From contig CAIKAS010000081.1 of the NCBI GenBank assembly GCA_903825445.1, positions 1 through 55,305 of the forward strand: a DNA stretch of 55,305 nt. Reading direction: 5' to 3'. The DNA comes from an uncultured Acidobacteriia bacterium. GTDB lineage: Bacteria; Acidobacteriota; Terriglobia; Bryobacterales; Bryobacteraceae. Under the pieces are notes generated by a model. That model did no database searches. It was not told the origin of the DNA and saw only the letters and a program-made list of their open reading frames with translations. Of the stretch, positions 39,326 to 47,687 are shown piece by piece (positions within the stretch are counted from its first letter, which is position 1; each line of letters begins with the position of its first letter). The position numbers and the translations under genes were made by a program.

Positions 39326-40060
39326 TCAATGATTCAGTTTCACTCCGAGCGCGCGCCTCCCGTTTGTCATTTCAAAACTTCCGTCGGGCATCACCTTCTC
39401 GAAGTTGGTCTTCAGGGGAATGCATTCGAGATCCGGTGCCAGCCATTCTGTGTCGCGGGAGTCGGGTGCTGTCATCTGCTGGATAACTGTCGTCTTGTAT
39501 CCGACCACCGTTTCGTGTCCGATGACCTGTTCCGAGCCGTCCGGCAACGCGCAATCGTTATGAATTCTCGCTGCACGGGTTGAGCGGTCAGCGTCCACCT
39601 TGGCGTCACCCTCAAGAAGGAGCGTTACGCCATACATGAGGCTGTTGAAAGGGTCCAGCAGCCTGTGATGCATATTCAGGAGCGGATTTTCAGGGAACAC
39701 ATGTGACGTTGCAAATTCGCGACCATCCCGAATATAAGAGGTCATGTATGAAAACACCTTACAGGGCGCGTCAGGATCGCAGTGCGTGAATTCGGATGTT
39801 ACGATGAACGGCGGCGCAGACCCCCAATAGTCCATCGTTTGCGGGAAAGCTACCGAAACCACGAGCAGACTCGCGACTGCTCCTGCCGCCAAACCTACAA
39901 GGACACCCCTGCCCGGCAAGCCGCTCAGTCTCGCTTTCCAGGACCGCGTCACGCCCGGCCGGCTCTGCGTGAGTCCGGCACGTACGCGTTGGCGCCACTC
40001 CGGCCTTACCGCGGGCGCAGCCCACTGATTGAGTAAATCATCGAGTTCGGTATCGTTCAT
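39326..40060 (-). CDS. Membrane anti-sigma factor candidate for the adjacent ECF sigma factor
   Basis: A 244-residue protein starting at 40060; its ATG overlaps the sigma factor stop by 4 bases (ATGA), the usual arrangement of a sigma and its regulator. A cytoplasmic N-terminal helix-rich part (MNDTELDDLLNQWAAPAVRPEWRQRV) precedes one transmembrane helix at about 60-80 (VLVGLAAGAVASLLVVSVAF). The periplasmic part of about 160 residues has two Cys residues near its start (THCDPDAPCKVF). It lacks the H-x3-C-x2-C zinc motif of classical ZAS anti-sigmas. The role is inferred from context and topology. Confidence 0.72.
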   Translation of the reverse strand: MNDTELDDLLNQWAAPAVRPEWRQRVRAGLTQSRPGVTRSWKARLSGLPGRGVLVGLAAGAVASLLVVSVAFPQTMDYWGSAPPFIVTSEFTHCDPDAPCKVFSYMTSYIRDGREFATSHVFPENPLLNMHHRLLDPFNSLMYGVTLLLEGDAKVDADRSTRAARIHNDCALPDGSEQVIGHETVVGYKTTVIQQMTAPDSRDTEWLAPDLECIPLKTNFEKVMPDGSFEMTNGRRALGVKLNH

Positions 40061-40551
40061 TGTCGTTTCTCCAGACTCGTTACATACGCTGCCAGCGTCT
40101 CCCTCAAACCTGCGCGTGCCCGCTGCAGGCGCGATTTCACCGCCGTCACCTCGATCTCCATCACTTCCCCGATCTCCGCCAGCGATAACTGCTCGTAGTG
40201 CGCCAGGATCAGCGTTTCTCTCTGGCCATCCGGCAGTGCGGCAACCGCGCGGGCCACTACCTGTTCCAGTTCCGTCCGCAACATTTGCCGCTCGGGAGAC
40301 CACTCATATCCCGGCTCCTGCATCTCCTGCGATGCATCTGCTGGCCGCCGCTTCAGCGCCTGATTGCGCACCACGCCAAAAAGGTATGTGCGGATCGGCG
40401 TGCGCTTCGGGTCATAGGAGTTGCCCGGGCGCAGGATTTGCAGGAAGCACTCCTGCACAATGTCCTCCGCATCGGCAACCGATCCCGTCATTCGGTACGC
40501 GAAGCGAAACAGCGGCGCGTGATGTTCGTCAAATAGCTGCGGCAGATTCAT
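40057..40551 (-). CDS. ECF-subfamily RNA polymerase sigma factor
   Basis: A 164-residue sigma-70 family protein of ECF size. Region 2 (LFDEHHAPLFRFAYRMTGSVADAEDIVQE) contains the core-binding and -10 recognition helices. Region 4 (VVARAVAALPDGQRETLILAHYEQLSLAEIGEVMEIEV) holds the -35 helix-turn-helix. There is a short linker and no C-terminal extension. It is translated together with the membrane protein encoded after it, and divergent from the Cys/His-rich protein, TonB receptor and ModA genes with only 63 bases between. It may therefore control both directions. Confidence 0.95.
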   Translation of the reverse strand: MNLPQLFDEHHAPLFRFAYRMTGSVADAEDIVQECFLQILRPGNSYDPKRTPIRTYLFGVVRNQALKRRPADASQEMQEPGYEWSPERQMLRTELEQVVARAVAALPDGQRETLILAHYEQLSLAEIGEVMEIEVTAVKSRLQRARAGLRETLAAYVTSLEKRQ

Positions 40552-40614
40552 GCGTTCCTAAACAGTATTACGGCCAATGCGAAAAAGGAATCGGCTTGCG
40601 GGTAAAATAGTTTT

Positions 40615-40986
40615 GTGCGTCGTCTCCTCGCGTCTCTGCTGGTGGCCCTGTTCAGCTTTTCGCTGATCGCGCCGGCGGTTTTCGCGTCTGATCCCGAGTC
40701 GAAGCTTCCCGCCTGCTGTCGACGCGACGGAAAGCACCACTGCGGCATGGCATCGAACGCCGCCGAACCCGGTTCGGGGCCGGCCGTGCGGGCGGCGCGC
40801 TGTCCTTCGTTTCCTGCCGCGAAAGCGGTTCCGGCACACCAGACGTCTGGCGCGCCCGGGGTTTCACGTTCGCTCCTCGCTGTCACTCTGCTCCACGCCG
40901 CTTCAGCCGCGCAGCCAGACTCACGCTCTCTGATCTCCTACAGTCAGTCCGGCCAAGAGCGCGGCCCACCTTCATTCTTCTCCTGA
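40615..40986 (+). CDS. Small exported Cys/His-rich protein, possible metal binder
   Basis: A 123-residue protein from a GTG at 40615. A signal peptide (RRLLASLLVALFSFSLIAPAV) ends near FASDP. Straight after it comes PACCRRDGKHHCGM, which packs three Cys, two His and a Met into 14 residues; one more Cys follows (ARCPSF). The C-terminal part holds a second hydrophobic stretch (SLLAVTLLHAASA) and a Ser/Gln-rich tail. This C-C-R-R-x-G-K-H-H-C string recurs in small acidobacterial exported proteins near TonB receptors. Metal binding is inferred from residues alone. TAAAAT at 40603-40608 would place the transcript start at the GTG, i.e. a leaderless mRNA. Confidence 0.7.
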   Translation: MRRLLASLLVALFSFSLIAPAVFASDPESKLPACCRRDGKHHCGMASNAAEPGSGPAVRAARCPSFPAAKAVPAHQTSGAPGVSRSLLAVTLLHAASAAQPDSRSLISYSQSGQERGPPSFFS

Positions 40987-41038
40987 TTCATTCTGTCTGC
41001 CTGTTCGTTAACGCACCACTATTACCTGGAGAAGAAGT

Positions 41039-43330
41039 ATGTCCCGTTGTCTGTCTGTTTTCTTGCTGTCTACCGCGCTGCTTCAAGCCGCGATTTTTGG
41101 AAGGATTCAGGGTATCGTCCACGATCCGACGCATCGGCCCATGAGCGGCGCGTCCGTGAAACTTCAGTCCGCAACGTCGGATTGGTCGCAGTCCGCGCAG
41201 TCGGACGATAACGGTGAATTTGCGTTCGCGACTGTACCTGTCGGCGATTACAACATCACCGTAACTCAGCCAAAATTCCAAACTTCGCAGCAAACCGTCA
41301 CCGTTGCCTCCGGCTCAGCGCCCGTCCTTCACTTTCAGTTGACGCTCGCCGCTGTGAGTCAGGCTACTGACGTCGTCAGTCAGGCGGACATGGCCAACAT
41401 GGACTCGGTCACCCCCACCACACTCATCGACCGGGACGATATTGCACAGACTCCTGGAGCCGACCGAACCAACAGCATGGCGATGATCACGGACTACGTC
41501 CCGGCCGCATACATGACGCACGACATGCTGCACATGCGCGGTGGACATCAGGTCGATTGGCTGATCGACGGCGTGCCAGTGCCGAATACCAATATCGCCA
41601 CCAATCTGGGCCCGCAGATCGACCCGAAGGACATCGATTATCTGGAAGTTCAACGCGGCAGCTACGACGCCGACTATGGAGACCGCACCTACGGCATCTT
41701 CAACATTGTGCCGCGAACCGGCTTCGAGCGCGACAACGATGCCGAACTCGTTACCTCCTTCGGAAACTGGTACCAAACCAACGACCAGATCAATTTCGGC
41801 GGACACACGAAGCGCTTAGCGTATTATGCGAGCCTCAACGGGAATCGCAGCGACTACGGACTGGAGCCGCCCGTGGGGCAGGTCGTTCACGATGCCGAGA
41901 ATGGCTTCGGGGGATTCGCATCGCTCATGTTCAACGCCAGCGCCGCAAACCAGTTCCGTCTGGTGGCCTCCATGCGGCGCGATTATTACCAGATCCCCAT
42001 CGATCCCGATCCGAATTCGGCAGGTAATCAGACGTATGCCAGTTACGGTCTCCGGGACAGCGAGAGCGAGCCCGATGGCTATGTCACGTTTTCGTGGATC
42101 CATACGTTTAGCCCGAAGTTGCTGATCACGGTTTCGCCGTTTTATCACTACAACCAGGCTGCGTACAACAGTTCGCCTAACGACTATCCCGCAGTCACGG
42201 ACGTGAAACAAACTTCCGACTACGCGGGTGGGCAGGCCAGCGTGAATGCCACTACCTTGAAGAACAACGACCTACAGGCAGGCTTTTACGGGTTTGCGCA
42301 ACACCAGAGCAACTACTTCAATAACGTCTTCACCGATTGCGGCGCGGACTGTCAAAATTTCGGGCCGTCGTCGGCCGCCGTTACCGGCGCGGTAATCGAA
42401 GAGTTCGTTAGTGACCGCGTCAAAGTGAGTTCGTGGCTGACGCTGATCGCCGGTCTTCGCGAATCGCATTTCACTTCGCCCGCTGCGGGTACGCAGCCCA
42501 AACTCACCGAGGACGCGACCGACCCGAGGCTTGGCGTCGCGATTCGGGTTCCCGGCGTGAAGTGGGTGCTGCGGGGCTTCTACGGAAGGTTCTATCAGCC
42601 GCCGCCACTGCTGACGGCGACCGGCCCTCTGAGTGATCTGGCGACGAGTCAAAATCTCACTTTTGGCGCTCTGCGCGGAGAGCGCGACAAGGAGTACCAG
42701 ACGGGCATCACGATTCCGCTTCATGGCTGGGTCCTTGACTCCGATGTATTCAGGACAAGGGCCACAAACTGGCTCGACCACAGCAACATCGGCGAGTCGA
42801 ACCTGTTCTGGCCACTCACCTGGAATGCCGCGATTATTCAGGGCTGGGAGGTCACACTTCGTTCCCCGAGAATCTGGCATCGCGCGCAAATTCACCTGGC
42901 TTATTCAAATCAGAGCGCGCAGGACGAAGGTCCGTTTACCGGAGGACTCGTCTGTCCCGTGGCGCTGCAATCGGTCTGCGAGCCGCCCCCCGGCTATGCG
43001 CCGGTAGACCACGATCAGCGGAACACCCTGAACATCGGCGCCAACGCGACACTGCCGGGGCGGGCGTTTGCCTCGGCCAACGTGTACTACGGTTCGGGAT
43101 TCACGAACGGCAATCCGAGCACGCTGTATCCAGGCGATTATCTGCCTTCGCACACCAATGTGGATCTCTCTGTTGGGAAGAGCTTCGGAGAGAAGTATCG
43201 CGTGTCGGTGAGTGCGCTGAATGTCACGAACGGCAGGACGCTGCTCGATAACAGCCTGACGTTTGGCGGTTTCCACTTCAACGATCCACGGCAAGTCTAC
43301 GTTGAGGTGCGCTATAAGTTTCACTACTAA
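41039..43330 (+). CDS. TonB-dependent receptor with carboxypeptidase-regulatory-like N-terminal domain, upstream of modA
   Basis: A 763-residue outer-membrane receptor. The start at 41039 follows a GGAGAAGA ribosome site. After a signal peptide of about 18 residues comes a beta-sandwich domain (GRIQGIVHDPTHRPMSGASV, DNGEFAFATVPVGDYNITV). The plug has MTHDMLHMRGGHQVDWLIDGV and YLEVQRGSYDADYGDRTYGIFNIV. The barrel ends VYVEVRYKFHY with an aromatic terminus. The M-T-H-D-M-L-H-M-R-G-G-H string in the plug is rich in Met and His and could touch a metal. No STN signalling domain is present. It stands 52 bases after the Cys/His-rich gene and 19 before modA, so all three likely form one operon. Confidence 0.93.
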   Translation: MSRCLSVFLLSTALLQAAIFGRIQGIVHDPTHRPMSGASVKLQSATSDWSQSAQSDDNGEFAFATVPVGDYNITVTQPKFQTSQQTVTVASGSAPVLHFQLTLAAVSQATDVVSQADMANMDSVTPTTLIDRDDIAQTPGADRTNSMAMITDYVPAAYMTHDMLHMRGGHQVDWLIDGVPVPNTNIATNLGPQIDPKDIDYLEVQRGSYDADYGDRTYGIFNIVPRTGFERDNDAELVTSFGNWYQTNDQINFGGHTKRLAYYASLNGNRSDYGLEPPVGQVVHDAENGFGGFASLMFNASAANQFRLVASMRRDYYQIPIDPDPNSAGNQTYASYGLRDSESEPDGYVTFSWIHTFSPKLLITVSPFYHYNQAAYNSSPNDYPAVTDVKQTSDYAGGQASVNATTLKNNDLQAGFYGFAQHQSNYFNNVFTDCGADCQNFGPSSAAVTGAVIEEFVSDRVKVSSWLTLIAGLRESHFTSPAAGTQPKLTEDATDPRLGVAIRVPGVKWVLRGFYGRFYQPPPLLTATGPLSDLATSQNLTFGALRGERDKEYQTGITIPLHGWVLDSDVFRTRATNWLDHSNIGESNLFWPLTWNAAIIQGWEVTLRSPRIWHRAQIHLAYSNQSAQDEGPFTGGLVCPVALQSVCEPPPGYAPVDHDQRNTLNIGANATLPGRAFASANVYYGSGFTNGNPSTLYPGDYLPSHTNVDLSVGKSFGEKYRVSVSALNVTNGRTLLDNSLTFGGFHFNDPRQVYVEVRYKFHY

Positions 43331-43349
43331 GTTGGGATAATAAGGACGA

Positions 43350-44135
43350 ATGAAGACACGCGCTATCGTCTTTGCCCTAATGTTGGCCGCAGCCGTGGCC
43401 AGTGCTCAACCCGCTACGCGAGAAGTGACCGTCGCCGCGGCGGCGAACCTGAATGAGGTCTTTCAGGCACTAGGGCCGCAGTTTGAAGCGGCGACCGGCA
43501 TCCATCCAGTGTTCAGCTTTGCGTCAACCGCGCAGCTCGCTCTTCAGATTGAGAACGGAGCGCCGTTCGACGTCTATGCAGCTGCCGATGTGGATCATGT
43601 CGAGCAACTGGAGAAGAAAGGCCTGCTCGTCGCCGGGTCGCGGGCGGTCTATGCGACAGGCATTCTGGCTCTCTGGATCCCGCCTGGTGGCAAGGCAAAC
43701 ATCAGTCGCTTAGAGGACCTGGTGCGTCCCGACGTGAAAGTGATCGCGCTTGCGAAGCCCGAGCTCGCGCCTTATGGCATGGCTGCGAGGGAGACGCTGC
43801 AGAAGCTGGGCATCTGGGGGCAGACGGAGCCCAAGGTTGTGTATGCGGACAACATCAGCATGGCGAAACAATACGGCACCTCGGGGAATGCCGATGCCGT
43901 TTTTACTGCTTATTCACTGGTGCTGAAGGAAAAGGGCAAAGTGATTCAGGTGGGCGAACAACTGCATTCACCGATCGATCAGGCGCTTGGTATTGTGCGC
44001 GCCTCGGCGCATCCGGATACGGCGCGGATCTTCGCGGACTACCTGCTGAACGGCAAAGGGCGCGATATCCTGCGCACTTCGGGATACCGAATACCGACCT
44101 CGGCAGTTCAGGCGAGACCGCTGGCTACGCGCTGA
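43350..44135 (+). CDS. modA: Periplasmic molybdate/tungstate-binding protein, ModA family (orphan)
   Basis: A 261-residue exported binding protein with a signal peptide at 1-19. It has the ModA order: VAAAANLNEVFQAL, FASTAQLALQIENGAPFDVYAAAD, APYGMAARETLQKLG, ADNISMAKQYGTSGNADAVFTAYSLV and a C-terminal GYRIPTS. The Ser of A-S-T-A, the Ala and Gly of the A-P-Y-G loop and the Tyr of T-A-Y-S sit at oxyanion-contact positions of the family. ModB and ModC are not adjacent; the next gene is the convergent hspR. It lies 19 bases after a TonB receptor gene, suggesting that the receptor delivers the ligand to this protein. Whether the ligand is molybdate, tungstate or another oxyanion is open. Confidence 0.9.
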   Translation: MKTRAIVFALMLAAAVASAQPATREVTVAAAANLNEVFQALGPQFEAATGIHPVFSFASTAQLALQIENGAPFDVYAAADVDHVEQLEKKGLLVAGSRAVYATGILALWIPPGGKANISRLEDLVRPDVKVIALAKPELAPYGMAARETLQKLGIWGQTEPKVVYADNISMAKQYGTSGNADAVFTAYSLVLKEKGKVIQVGEQLHSPIDQALGIVRASAHPDTARIFADYLLNGKGRDILRTSGYRIPTSAVQARPLATR

Positions 44136-44137
44136 GT

Positions 44138-44527
44138 TCAGCCTTTCCTTGTGCGGGTTATGATCGCTGTGCGGATCACCGGCACCAGGGAGTTTTGCTC
44201 GCCAGCGCGCGCGGCTGGCGGACGATTCGCTAATTCGAAGTTCAGCGATTGCACGAATTCCTCGATCTGATTCTGCATCGCTTCCATCTTGTTCCGCATG
44301 TTGAGTATGATCTCCACTCCAGCGAGATTCACGCCGAGATCGCGCGTCAGGTGCAGGATCACTTCGAGTCGTTCCAGATCCTCTTCGGTATAGAGGCGCG
44401 TGTTGCCATCGCTGCGACTGGGCTTCAACAAGCCTTCGCGTTCGTAGAGACGCAGCGTTTGCGGGTGGACGGAATACTGCTCCGCCACCGAGGAAATCAT
44501 GTAGGCTGCTTTGGATTTTGCGCGCAT
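44138..44527 (-). CDS. hspR: HspR-type MerR-family heat-shock repressor
   Basis: A 129-residue regulator. The MerR helix-turn-helix reads YMISSVAEQYSVHPQTLRLYEREGLLKPSRSDGNTRLYTEEDLERLEVI, which fits HspR (Y-M-I-S, H-x-Q-T-L-R-x-Y). A helical dimerisation part follows (NMRNKMEAMQNQIEEFVQSL) with no metal-binding Cys. HspR binds HAIR operators with DnaK as co-repressor, so free DnaK sets expression. It is the third gene of dnaK-dnaJ-hspR and starts 1 base after the dnaJ stop. A HAIR-like site overlies the dnaK promoter. Confidence 0.93.
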   Translation of the reverse strand: MRAKSKAAYMISSVAEQYSVHPQTLRLYEREGLLKPSRSDGNTRLYTEEDLERLEVILHLTRDLGVNLAGVEIILNMRNKMEAMQNQIEEFVQSLNFELANRPPAARAGEQNSLVPVIRTAIITRTRKG

Positions 44528-44528
44528 G

Positions 44529-45758
44529 TCATTCCTCGGTCCAGAGTCCCGTCCGCGGATCTTCGGGATGCAGTTCGGCCAGTTCGCGCAGAAGTTCCTT
44601 CGTCTTCTCGTCGCGTATCTCCGGAGCTTTCAGAACGACCTGGACGATCTGGTCGCCTTTTGTATTCTTGCGCGCATTCGGCACGCCACGGTCACGCAGC
44701 CGGAACTTCTGGTTGTTCTGCGTGCCTGGCGGGATCTTGAGCAAGGTCTTGCCATCGATGGTGGGAACTTCGATCTTGGTTCCCAGACCCGCTTCCCATA
44801 TGGTGATGGGCACTTCCATGTGGATATTATCGCCTTCCCGGCGGAAGACAGGATGCGGCTCCACGTTCGTCGTGATGTAGAGGTCGCCGGGAGGCGCGCC
44901 CATTGTGCCGGCATTGCCTTTGCCTGGTACGCGCAGGCGGGAACCATGTTGCGCTCCGGCAGGAATACGCACTTCCACGAACTCCTTGTGGGAGATGCGG
45001 CCATCCCCGTGACAAGCAGCGCAGGCGTTCTTGATGCGGCCTTTGCCATTGCAGCGCGGACAGGTGAGATTGAACTTCATGTTGCCGGCCATCTGCTGCA
45101 CGTTGCCCGTGCCACTGCATTGCGGACAGCTTGCCGAACCCGCTTCATTGCCGCCGGTACCATGACAAACGGCACACTGCTCGTAGCGGGTGATTTCGAT
45201 CTTGGTCTGCGTTCCCTTGATGGCCTGCCAGAAGGTGATGTTCAGGCCGTACTCAAGATCGGCGCCCTTTTCCGGGGCAGTTTCCGGCTCATGGCCACCG
45301 CTCGAATCGCCGCGGAAGAACTGATCGAAGATACCCTTGAACGCACCTCCACCTGCTCCACTCGCGGCCGAACCGGCATTGCCGCCACCAGCACGTCGGC
45401 CCTTCGCAGCTTCCGCCTGGGCGTCACGGAACATTTCGGAGAAGTCGAAACCGCCGAAGTCCATGTTCGGACCTCCTCGTGGTCCGCCTGCTCCGGCTCC
45501 AGGATTCGGATTAGCCGCGAACCCGGAGTCGGAGTAAAAGCCGACCTGATCGTACATCCCACGCTTCTTCGTGTCGCTGAGGACGTCGTAGGCTTCCTGA
45601 ACGTTCTTGAAGCGGTCTTCCGCGGACTTATCGCCCGGGTTGAGGTCGGGATGGTACTTGCGCGCAAGTTTGCGGTAGGCCTTGCGGATATCATCTTCCG
45701 CAGCGCCGCGTTCTATTCCGAGCGTCTTGTAGTAATCGTGTTTTGGCTGGCTTGCCAT
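44529..45758 (-). CDS. dnaJ: Chaperone DnaJ (full type with zinc domain)
   Basis: A 409-residue co-chaperone that stimulates DnaK ATPase and delivers substrates. The J domain (residues about 8-75) has the H-P-D motif in [18 protein letters not shown] Gly/Ala/Phe-rich linker follows. The zinc domain has all four C-x-x-C-x-G-x-G repeats: [24 protein letters not shown] and CAACHGDG. The two beta C-terminal domains ([19 protein letters not shown] onward) complete the fold. It lies 18 bases after dnaK and directly before hspR. No grpE gene is in the operon. Confidence 0.97.
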
Positions 45759-45776
45759 TTCGTTTTGGTCACAGGA

Positions 45777-47687
45777 TTACTTCTTGTCGTCAACGTCAAC
45801 AAACTCGGCGTCTACTACGTCTTCCTTCGGCTTGTCGGCACCAGGAGGCGGAGGTGCAGCACCCTGGGGACCATCGGCCGGAGGCGTGCTGGAGGCCTTG
45901 TACATCGCCTCAGCCAGCTTGTGACTGGCCTGCGTCAGCTTGTCGGTCGCCGCGTTCAGCTTGTCGGCGTCGTTTTCGTTGATCGCCTTCTTCACGTCTT
46001 CGATGGCTGCTTCGATGTTCTTCGCATCGCCATCGCTGACCTTGTCGCGGTGTTCCTTCAGCGTCTTCTCGACGTTGTAGACCATGGCGTCGGCACGGTT
46101 ACGAGCCTCGATCTGATCCTTCGACTTACGGTCGTCGGCAGCATGCGATTCGGCATCGCGCGCCATCTTGTCGACTTCATCCTTGGAGAGACCCGAGGAC
46201 GACGTGATGGTGATCTTCTGTTCGTTGTTGGTGGCCTTGTCTTTCGCAGCCACGTTCAGGATGCCGTTGGCGTCGATATCGAAGGTCACTTCGATCTGCG
46301 GCACGCCACGCGGAGCCGGGGGAATGCCGACCAGCGAGAACACACCGAGCAGACGATTGTCCTTGGCCATGGCGCGTTCGCCCTGGAAGGCCTTGATCTC
46401 GACCGAGGTCTGGCTATCCGCCGCAGTCGAGAACGTTTCGCTCTTGCGCGTCGGAATCGTCGTGTTGCGTTCGATCAGCTTGGTGAACACACCACCCAGC
46501 GTTTCGATACCCAACGAGAGCGGGGTCACGTCGAGGAGGAGCACGTCCTTCACTTCGCCGCCGAGCACGCCGCCCTGAACCGCCGCGCCGATCGCGACCA
46601 CTTCGTCCGGGTTCACGCTCTTATTCGGCTCTTTGTTGAAGAGTTCCTTCACGATGGTCTGGATGCGCGGGATGCGCGTGGAACCGCCGACAAGAACGAC
46701 TTCGTCGATCTTGTCCGGGGTAACATTGGCATCCTGCATGGCCTGCTTGCAAGGACCAACGGTGCGCTGGAACAGGTCTTCGCACATTTGCTCATAGCGC
46801 GAGCGCGTGAGCTTCATGAGAAGGTGCTTGGGGCCTGTCGCATCGGCCGTAACGAACGGCAGATTGATGTCGGTTTCGAGCAGCGTGGAGAGCTCCATCT
46901 TGGCTTTTTCAGCCGCTTCCTTGAGCCGCTGGAGCGCCATCTGATCCTTGGAGAGATCGATGCCCGATTCCTTCTTGAATTCGGAGATGATCCAGTCCAT
47001 GATGCGCTGGTCGATGTTGTCGCCGCCCAGATGGGTGTCGCCGTTAGTGGACTTCACTTCCACGACGCCATCGCCGACTTCGAGAATGGAGACGTCGAAG
47101 GTACCGCCACCGAAATCGTATACGGCGATGGTCTCGTTGGTCTTCTTATCGAGCCCGTACGCGAGGGCCGCAGCTGTCGGCTCGTTGATGATGCGCTTGA
47201 CGTCGAGACCGGCGATCTTGCCAGCGTCTTTGGTTGCCTGGCGCTGAGCGTCGTTGAAGTAGGCCGGAACCGTGATGACGGCTTCCGTCACTTTCTGGCC
47301 CAGATAGGCTTCGGCCGCTTCCTTGAGCTTGGTCAGAATCATGGCCGAAATCTCCGGCGGCGACTGCAGTTTGCCGTTGATTTCCACACGCGCGTCGTCA
47401 TTATCGCCGCGCACAACCTTGTACGGGACCATCTTCATCTCTTCGCTGACTTCGCCGTAATGACGGCCCATGAAGCGCTTGATGGAGAAGATAGTCTGCT
47501 CGGGGTTGGTGATGGCCTGGCGCTTGGCGACCTGACCGACGAGGCGTTCACCCGACTTGGTGAAGGCGACGACGGACGGCGTGGTGCGCGCACCCTCCTG
47601 ATTTGCAATGACGGTCGGCTGACCGGCTTCCATGACGGAGACGACGGAGTTCGTCGTTCCAAGGTCGATACCAATGATTTTGCCCAT
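45777..47687 (-). CDS. dnaK: Chaperone DnaK (Hsp70)
   Basis: A 636-residue Hsp70. It opens [19 protein letters not shown], then has [34 protein letters not shown] and [11 protein letters not shown] (phosphate loops and adenosine site). The substrate-binding domain follows ([15 protein letters not shown]) with a C-terminal lid. The tail is Pro/Ala-rich and ends in [11 protein letters not shown], an acidic terminus as in other DnaK proteins (E-E-V-D-like). It heads the dnaK-dnaJ-hspR operon and has a near-consensus promoter under a HAIR-like operator. AAGGAGG stands before the start codon, with a small hairpin between. Confidence 0.98.

What the first reader, a model, noticed from the sequence alone, without database searches (positions are those of the whole stretch)
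39326..44135. ECF sigma/anti-sigma pair divergent from a Cys/His-rich exported protein, a TonB receptor and an orphan ModA
Seen: sigma and membrane partner overlap by 4 bases; 63 bases away an opposite operon encodes a protein with a PACCRRDGKHHCGM motif, a TonB receptor with a Met/His-rich plug, and ModA without ModBC. Known: TonB receptors import scarce ligands, and ModA binds molybdate or tungstate before ModBC. Inference: an outer-membrane oxyanion or metal uptake unit under its own sigma factor. TonB-dependent molybdate uptake is little described. The Cys/His protein could be a sensor or metallochaperone.
Basis: partly seen in the sequence, partly recalled or inferred. Interest (0 to 1): 0.7.

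Follow-up and report, generated by a model that had tools for sequence, protein, structure and literature searches.

The report
Arrest-peptide leader before a TonB receptor
The small Cys/His protein looks like a self-stalling leader peptide, probably copper-sensing, that controls the outer-membrane receptor gene behind it; this points to metal (copper) homeostasis rather than a dedicated molybdate uptake system.

Summary
The Cys/His protein (40615-40986) is the key part. It belongs to a family of exported leaders found in two Acidobacteriota families: 92 of 95 profile hits end in RGPP or RAPP, tested arrest motifs (PMC12992588, abstract). 91 of 95 carry CC[RL]-x6-C, and in 90 of those 91 a further Cys lies 50-55 residues before the motif, like the CXXC/RAPP ruler of the copper leader CruR (PMC9426467). 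A TonB receptor starts within 600 bases for 74 of 92. The codons after RGPP pair with the receptor's Shine-Dalgarno more than controls do (z -1.19 vs 0.01, p=1e-9) and more than synonymous codons would. A CruR-like C>G bubble is present (p=1e-12). Copper is supported only by neighbours: MbnP, MbnH, CusF, PepSY_TM, one OprC-type receptor. An oxyanion unit under its own sigma is not supported: 86 other leader loci show no modA or sigma, G200 has modA only; G163 has modA and sigma without leader and receptor; the sigma element faces sigma. Arrest, ligand and regulation are untested.

The parts
39326..40060 (-). membrane partner (putative anti-sigma), 244 aa
   Evidence: overlaps sigma by 4 bases; one hydrophobic segment by eye; no family hit above a cut-off; match in 11 of 200 family genomes, own included
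40057..40551 (-). ECF sigma factor, 164 aa
   Evidence: Sigma70_r2 and Sigma70_r4_2; TIGR02937 91.8 bits
40566..40592 (-). promoter-like element of the sigma gene (GATTCCTTT-N13-TAATA)
   Evidence: upstream of sigma in 7 of 9 sigma loci compared, one of the other two cut by a contig end; one match in the whole assembly; 0.01 expected by chance in the window
40615..40986 (+). leader ORF (Cys/His protein), 123 aa, GTG start
   Evidence: family of 95 profile hits, 92 ending in R[AG]PP
40714..40743 (+). codons of the CCR-x6-C motif (residues 34-43)
   Evidence: C34, C35, R36, G39, C43 invariant in 41 aligned members; CC[RL]-x6-C in 91 of 95 hits
40830..41030 (+). C>G bubble (candidate Rho loading region); ends approximate
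   Evidence: C 24-44%, G 15-31% in 78-nt windows; family p=1e-12 against 187 ordinary gene pairs
40960..40971 (+). RGPP codons, putative ribosome arrest site
   Evidence: R116-P119 invariant in 41 aligned members; RGPP supports arrest in tests by others (PMC12992588, abstract)
40975..40983 (+). UUCUUCUCC, last sense codons of the leader; anti-Shine-Dalgarno strand
   Evidence: 9 perfect base pairs with 41028-41036
41028..41036 (+). Shine-Dalgarno GGAGAAGAA of the receptor gene
41039..43330 (+). TonB-dependent receptor, 763 aa
   Evidence: CarboxypepD_reg and Plug; TBDT fold, pTM 0.73
41519..41548 (+). plug segment HDMLHMRGGH with conserved H161, H165, H170
   Evidence: modelled with pLDDT below 50
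43350..44135 (+). ModA, 261 aa, begins 20 bases after the receptor stop
   Evidence: TIGR01256 186.1 bits; 15 PDB sequences matched, best E 1e-45, all named molybdate- or molybdenum-related

Best explanation
40615-40986 encodes a nascent-chain sensor in cis. Its exported part carries CCR-x6-C and a further Cys at a fixed distance from the arrest motif. When the metal, most likely copper, is scarce, the ribosome stalls at RGPP near the C-terminus. The stalled ribosome covers the following codons (UUCUUCUCC), which otherwise pair with the receptor's Shine-Dalgarno, and keeps Rho off a C-rich stretch, so receptor and ModA are made. When metal binds the emerging leader, stalling is relieved, the ribosome leaves, the Shine-Dalgarno is masked and Rho may stop transcription. 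Shown by sequence: motif, spacing, RNA complementarity, C>G bubble, linkage to receptors. Inferred: arrest, copper as ligand, sign of the response, co-transcription of modA. ModA is taken to be the genome's single molybdate-binding protein working with the unlinked ModBC, a passenger whose expression the leader would also gate. The sigma pair is a neighbour without shown involvement.
For: 92 of 95 profile hits end in R[AG]PP; background 5 of 620 other ORFs, 4 of those 5 being DUF2946 proteins. Cys..R[AG]PP spacing 50-55 in 90 of 91 (first Cys sought 40-62 residues before the motif; one member has none), while the neighbouring C43-C63 spacing drifts. TonB receptor starting within 600 bases for 74 of 92, 0.6-2.6 kb downstream for 11 more. 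Receptors behind the leader fall into at least two large separate clades. Anti-SD pairing: 65 loci mean z -1.19 against 0.01 for 187 controls; mean profile lowest at the codons just after RGPP; mean synonymous percentile 0.287 against 0.511, p=2e-7. C>G bubble p=1e-12. Copper: 3 of the 10 MbnP genes found in 150 genomes lie within 6 kb of a leader; MbnH and CusF neighbours; two leaders directly precede PepSY_TM genes, as CruR homologues do (PMC9426467, section 10); one precedes an OprC homologue, PDB 6fok E 1e-18.
Against: No arrest, copper binding or regulation was tested. For the window alone the pairing is modest: shuffle p 0.045, synonymous percentile 0.369, fold z 0.15 and -0.58. Only 23 of 65 loci reach shuffle p 0.05, and 17 of 65 have their best SD partner starting within -6 to +12 of the end of RGPP. 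The window leader lacks CXXC (3 of 57 and 8 of 35 members have it) and hits no Pfam family at E up to 0.1; hhalign to four DUF2946 proteins aligned only the signal peptide (probability 11%). The window genome has no MbnP and its receptor has no OprC-type hit. At most leader loci I recognised no copper gene, but neighbours were annotated only through representatives.
Confidence: 0.72

Rival explanations
1. One reading: leader, receptor and ModA form a TonB-dependent oxyanion (molybdate/tungstate) import unit, the leader sensing or carrying metal, under the ECF sigma.
For: ModA directly follows the receptor in the window and G200. Elsewhere in the family five receptors directly beside ModA, and one two genes away (L146), fall into one clade with full support, with an HTH-PBP regulator (PF12727 for the one scanned) adjacent to receptor or ModA in 5 of the 6 loci.
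Against: The window and G200 receptors lie far from that clade, as do two other receptors one and two genes from ModA (L155, L161). ModA adjoins a leader-receptor pair only in the window and G200. G163 keeps modA and sigma at the same place without leader and receptor. The sigma element faces sigma only.
Confidence: 0.1
2. The leader is an arrest peptide of this kind but senses something other than copper: Zn, Fe, Ni/Co, or thiol redox/export state.
For: CutF-like leaders with His-only motifs precede HupE/UreJ genes, linked to Ni/Co (PMC9973294, section 11). One leader locus has a divergent CobN-type chelatase gene. Conserved His, not Met, in the receptor.
Against: The recognised neighbours MbnP, MbnH, CusF, PepSY_TM and the OprC-type receptor are copper-linked.
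Confidence: 0.25
3. The Cys/His protein is an ordinary periplasmic metallochaperone acting in trans; RGPP and the anti-SD complementarity are incidental.
For: Exported by its look, Cys/His-rich, no experimental proof of arrest.
Against: RAPP-like motifs are strongly excluded from proteomes (PMC12992588, abstract), yet RGPP is invariant near the C-terminus here at fixed distance from a Cys; the segment between is poorly conserved; synonymous codons after RGPP favour pairing.
Confidence: 0.08

Closest known systems
CruR (DUF2946) leader of Bordetella pertussis cruR-crtA(bfrG)-bp2921
   Same: Small exported leader before a TonB receptor; Cys motif at fixed distance from a C-terminal arrest motif (45 residues from CXXC to RAPP there); C>G bubble; TonB receptor, PepSY_TM and MbnPH-like genes among neighbours of its homologues (PMC9426467, abstract, sections 9, 10 and passages).
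   Different: CCR-x6-C plus a Cys 50-55 residues from RGPP, CXXC in a minority only; RGPP instead of RAPP; no significant Pfam hit for the window protein; SD-masking strand in the post-motif codons, not reported in the parts of that paper that I saw.
CutF-cutO of Rhodobacter capsulatus
   Same: Exported nascent copper sensor with C-terminal stalling-like motif; mRNA stem shields the downstream ribosome-binding site (PMC9973294, abstract).
   Different: CutF controls a multicopper oxidase and copper promotes its translation; no sequence comparison to CutF was made here.
SecM-secA
   Same: Arrest near the end of the leader unmasks a sequestered downstream Shine-Dalgarno (PMC7897499, passages).
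   Different: SecM senses secretion activity; its arrest sequence differs.
RAPP/RGPP upstream ORFs surveyed by Fujiwara et al. 2025
   Same: RAPP and RGPP shown to arrest; TonB-related RAPP/RGPP upstream ORFs reported throughout Gram-negative bacteria (PMC12992588, abstract and section 13).
   Different: That text does not describe this sensor motif, spacing or SD pairing in what I read; its supplements were not seen, so this family may be in its lists.
ModABC molybdate transporter
   Same: ModA meets the TIGR01256 cut-off.
   Different: modA and modBC lie on different contigs.

Membership tests
CruR-type copper leader (DUF2946) | C-terminal RAPP-like arrest motif | tested here: met
   RGPP, followed by 4 residues; 92 of 95 family hits have R[AG]PP in the last 20 residues
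CruR-type copper leader (DUF2946) | CXXC metal motif | tested here: not met
   window has C-P-S-F at the matching place; CXXC in 3 of 57 and 8 of 35 members
CruR-type copper leader (DUF2946) | fixed spacing between Cys motif and arrest motif | tested here: met
   50-55 residues in 90 of 91; value differs from CruR's 45
CruR-type copper leader (DUF2946) | Pfam DUF2946 model above cut-off | tested here: not met
   no DUF2946 hit for the window protein; 9 of 41 members weak, best E 0.0068; one class-mate locus hit by both DUF2946 over cut-off and the leader profile (G385); hhalign 11%
CruR-type copper leader (DUF2946) | heads a gene set with a TonB receptor or PepSY_TM gene | tested here: met
   receptor within 600 bases for 74 of 92, the window included; PepSY_TM behind two others
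CruR-type copper leader (DUF2946) | export signal | tested here: inconclusive
   charged-hydrophobic N-terminus seen in the alignment; no signal-peptide program run
CruR-type copper leader (DUF2946) | translation arrest relieved by copper; Rho dependence | not testable with these tools
   needs toeprinting and reporters; C>G bubble present
SecM-like readout | downstream SD masked by a stem that the stalled ribosome would open | tested here: inconclusive
   clear as a family trend; 9 bp in the window, modest taken alone; opening by a ribosome not testable
ModA (TIGR01256) | model cut-off | tested here: met
   186.1 against 62.5 bits
ModABC operon | modA beside modB and modC | tested here: not met
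   modBC on G000:C237
TonB-dependent copper receptor OprC (TIGR01778) | model hit | tested here: not met
   no TIGR01778 hit for the window receptor; another leader-linked receptor, L222, hits at 121 bits, below its 472 cut-off
ECF sigma with anti-sigma | sigma regions 2 and 4; membrane partner | tested here: inconclusive
   sigma met; partner has no family hit above a cut-off

The most novel reading that the evidence does not exclude
A distinct Acidobacteriota class of metal-sensing arrest peptides combines a CruR-like Cys ruler with a SecM-like Shine-Dalgarno mask written into the leader's last codons. It has been placed before several unrelated receptors, sometimes as tandem copies, and in this genus has captured modA, so that molybdate binding-protein supply is gated by copper availability.
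Probability: 0.3. Interest if true: 0.75.

Novelty: new variant of a known kind. Interest (0 to 1): 0.6.

Why it matters
Copper acquisition by bacteria is poorly characterised (so PMC12914433, abstract), and Acidobacteriota carry many unassigned TonB receptors. A leader readable from sequence alone (CCR-x6-C ... C-x(50-55)-RGPP, then an anti-SD) would flag which of them are metal-responsive. It would also show nascent-chain metal sensing read out by Shine-Dalgarno masking as well as by Rho. And it corrects a tempting molybdate-uptake annotation.

Tried and rejected
Oxyanion unit under its own sigma: weakened by synteny, receptor phylogeny and the sigma element. Mo-Cu CO dehydrogenase as the reason for pairing a copper leader with ModA: 0 of 15 genus genomes pass the CoxL cut-off. 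C-rich intergenic gap as the Rho signal: weak in the gap itself (37 of 53 against 115 of 221, p=0.03), strong only when the end of the leader ORF is included. Profile link to DUF2946: only the signal peptide aligned. Receptor structure for a metal site: the His loop has pLDDT below 50, and the nearest folds are general TBDTs (PqqU first), so no ligand could be named.

Dropped rows and choices: 2 of 57 leaders, 3 of 95 hits without R[AG]PP (L067 second hit, two in L098), 4 of 95 without the Cys motif, 65 of the 74 leader-receptor pairs were usable (gap and length limits), pairs with gaps of 20-300 only (53). Six loci hold two leader copies and both are counted; in three of them the first copy still counts as having a receptor within 600 bases, with the second copy between. 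In L221 no receptor was counted because the called receptor ORF runs back over the leader, though the receptor is there. Receptor starts were chosen by script, likewise for the controls of 61 and 82; one search used first starts. The label "modA-linked" was set by me: it took L146 (two genes from modA) but not L155 (one gene) or L161 (two genes), whose receptors fall elsewhere.
Full report
What is there. The five genes are as described. Sigma is ECF; its partner has no family hit above a cut-off. The Cys/His protein has no Pfam hit at E up to 0.1 and only a weak NCBIfam hit below its cut-off. The receptor has a CarboxypepD_reg and a Plug domain. ModA is a full equivalog; the only ModA found in the genome is this one, and modB-modC lie together, without modA, on another contig. 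The assembly is 96% complete with 9% contamination, so gaps are possible.

Conservation. A Cys/His homologue was found in 51 of 150 genomes of the same family, own included, and by profile in 28 of 297 genomes of the phylum: 25 in a second family of the same class, 2 in the window's family, 1 elsewhere. The window's family seems to be in Bryobacterales: the record L032 so titled has the contig length of a G034 contig; Bryobacterales are Acidobacteriota. In the other leader loci fetched, 57 stretches of the window's family and 29 of the second family, mostly 10-15 kb, tblastn at E 1e-5 finds no modA, sigma or partner homologue; a weak sigma match (28%, E 4e-4) was seen in L062 at a looser threshold. 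A few of the 57 stretches hold doubtful leaders (L097, L098). G163, same genus, has dnaK-dnaJ-hspR-modA-sigma-partner-SDR-glnA as in the window but no leader or receptor there (dnaK from its length and place only), and no match to the window receptor at E 1e-60 anywhere; its genome was not searched for the leader. G200, same genus, has leader (61%), receptor (77%) and modA (73%) but no sigma within the 19 kb taken. The receptor is in 4 of 19 genus genomes, own included, at E 1e-60. The ModA tree puts window, G097, G163 and G200 together (99), with G163 and G200 as sisters (87), so loss of leader and receptor in G163 is the simpler history; this is inference.

The leader. Among 41 aligned members the invariant residues are P32, C34, C35, R36, G39, C43 and R116-G-P-P119, at 21% mean column identity. 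Of 95 profile hits in the fetched loci 92 have R[AG]PP in the last 20 residues; among 620 other called ORFs of 80-250 residues 5 do, 4 of them DUF2946 proteins. CC[RL]-x6-C is in 91 of 95; in 90 of these 91 a later Cys lies 50-55 residues before the motif (sought between 40 and 62), one member having none, whereas the C43-C63 spacing has sd 2.6. In CruR the CXXC-RAPP spacing is 45, kept to one or two residues, and RAPP sits three residues from the end (PMC9426467, section 9). RAPP and RGPP support robust arrest (PMC12992588, abstract), and CruR arrests in vitro in a RAPP-dependent way (same paper, passages).

Context. A TonB receptor starts within 600 bases downstream for 45 of 57 members in the window's family and 29 of 35 in the second family; 8 and 3 more have one 0.6-2.6 kb downstream; 1 lies at a contig end. 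Of the six without one, two precede a CcmH-like gene (L089, L093), one MbnP (L094), two PepSY_TM genes (L234, L235), and in L221 the receptor is present but its called ORF overruns the leader. The receptors behind the leader form two large separate clades, plus an OprC-type one and others: what stays constant is the leader, as expected of a regulator. Two leader copies stand in tandem in six of the 29 second-family loci. Copper links: MbnP (TIGR04052) is in 10 of 150 genomes, and 3 of those 10 genes lie 0.3 to 6 kb from a leader; by my own estimate a few hundredths would be expected by chance. MbnH (TIGR04039; over its cut-off in L074, below it for the gene of L078, which is cut by the end of the stretch) and CusF (PF11604, L093) also occur beside leaders. 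PepSY_TM genes follow CruR homologues too (PMC9426467, section 10). One leader (L222) precedes an OprC homologue whose CPNHM aligns with CPNRM of OprC; that this is OprC's copper site is recalled.

RNA readout. In the window the last sense codons of the leader, UUCUUCUCC (40975-40983), pair perfectly over 9 bases with the receptor's Shine-Dalgarno (41028-41036); G200 has a longer pairing of different sequence at the same place. Over 65 leader-receptor pairs the pairing exceeds shuffles (mean z -1.19) where 187 ordinary gene pairs do not (0.01; p=1e-9; 23 of 65 against 11 of 187 at p 0.05 or less, 4 against 4 at 0.01). Sliding the test window along the leader, the mean is lowest just after RGPP, though only 17 of 65 loci have their single best partner there. 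Randomly chosen synonymous codons after RGPP pair less well (mean percentile of the real ones 0.287 against 0.511 in controls; p=2e-7; window 0.369). The end of the leader is also C-rich and G-poor (window up to 44% C with 18% G; family p=1e-12), as in CruR's Rho site (PMC9426467, passages). Masking of a downstream Shine-Dalgarno is the SecM readout; for ApcA, ApdA and ApdP no such hairpin was predicted (PMC7897499, passages).

Sigma. GATTCCTTT-N13-TAATA lies upstream of sigma in 7 of 9 sigma loci compared, facing sigma, 5 of the 7 in stretches where marks no modA; it occurs once in the assembly and in no leader locus but the window. Nothing found ties sigma to the leader operon, but no regulon test was possible.

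Against my reading. Everything about arrest, ligand and sign is inferred. The window's own pairing is modest taken alone. DUF2946 membership was tested and not met. At most leader loci no copper gene was recognised, though neighbours were scanned only through representatives. Five receptors directly beside ModA in other genomes, with one two genes away, form a clade with full support; two more near ModA (L155, L161) fall elsewhere. This keeps a TonB-ModA function alive elsewhere in the family.

Prior work. Searches for TonB-dependent molybdate uptake (4 papers listed; 15 of 108 listed) showed no paper on a dedicated TonB molybdate receptor among the titles and abstract starts; the library is partial. 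RAPP/RGPP upstream ORFs before TonB receptors are already reported in general (PMC12992588, section 13), so the kind is known. I found no description of this sensor motif, or of SD masking by post-motif codons, in the parts of PMC9426467, PMC9973294 and PMC12992588 that I read; a search pairing CruR, CutF, arrest peptide, Acidobacteri and copper-responsive (15 of 30 listed) showed no paper on such leaders in Acidobacteriota. PMC12914433 (abstract and passages) shows that the CruR-controlled receptor CrtA imports chelated copper, which makes the copper reading of the present receptor plausible; the two receptors were not compared.

Noticed in passing
L145, L151, L157, L175, L176 (and L146): TonB receptors directly beside ModA (L146: two genes away) in other family genomes form one clade with full support, in 5 of 6 with an HTH-PBP regulator gene adjacent: candidate oxyanion receptors.
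   Followed up: partly
L048:10389-11459 and 18 other loci: A secreted-looking BNR-repeat protein of about 355 residues with CQCC and CPMDG motifs (seen in the two members printed) occurs in 19 leader loci, mostly by the long receptor type.
   Followed up: no
L224, L227, L230, L232, L233, L237: Two leader ORFs in tandem before one receptor.
   Followed up: no
G000:C237, L095:1443-3177: modB-modC without modA.
   Followed up: partly
L066: Leader and TonB receptor with a divergent CobN-type chelatase gene and MbnP nearby.
   Followed up: no
L074:4826-9057: Molybdopterin-binding-fold-like protein, MbnH, leader and receptor in one direction, a possible operon; a relative of the first protein also adjoins modA in L032.
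   Followed up: no
window 44138-47687: hspR, dnaJ and a dnaK-like gene lie beyond modA on the other strand; hspR and dnaJ keep this place in G163.
   Followed up: no
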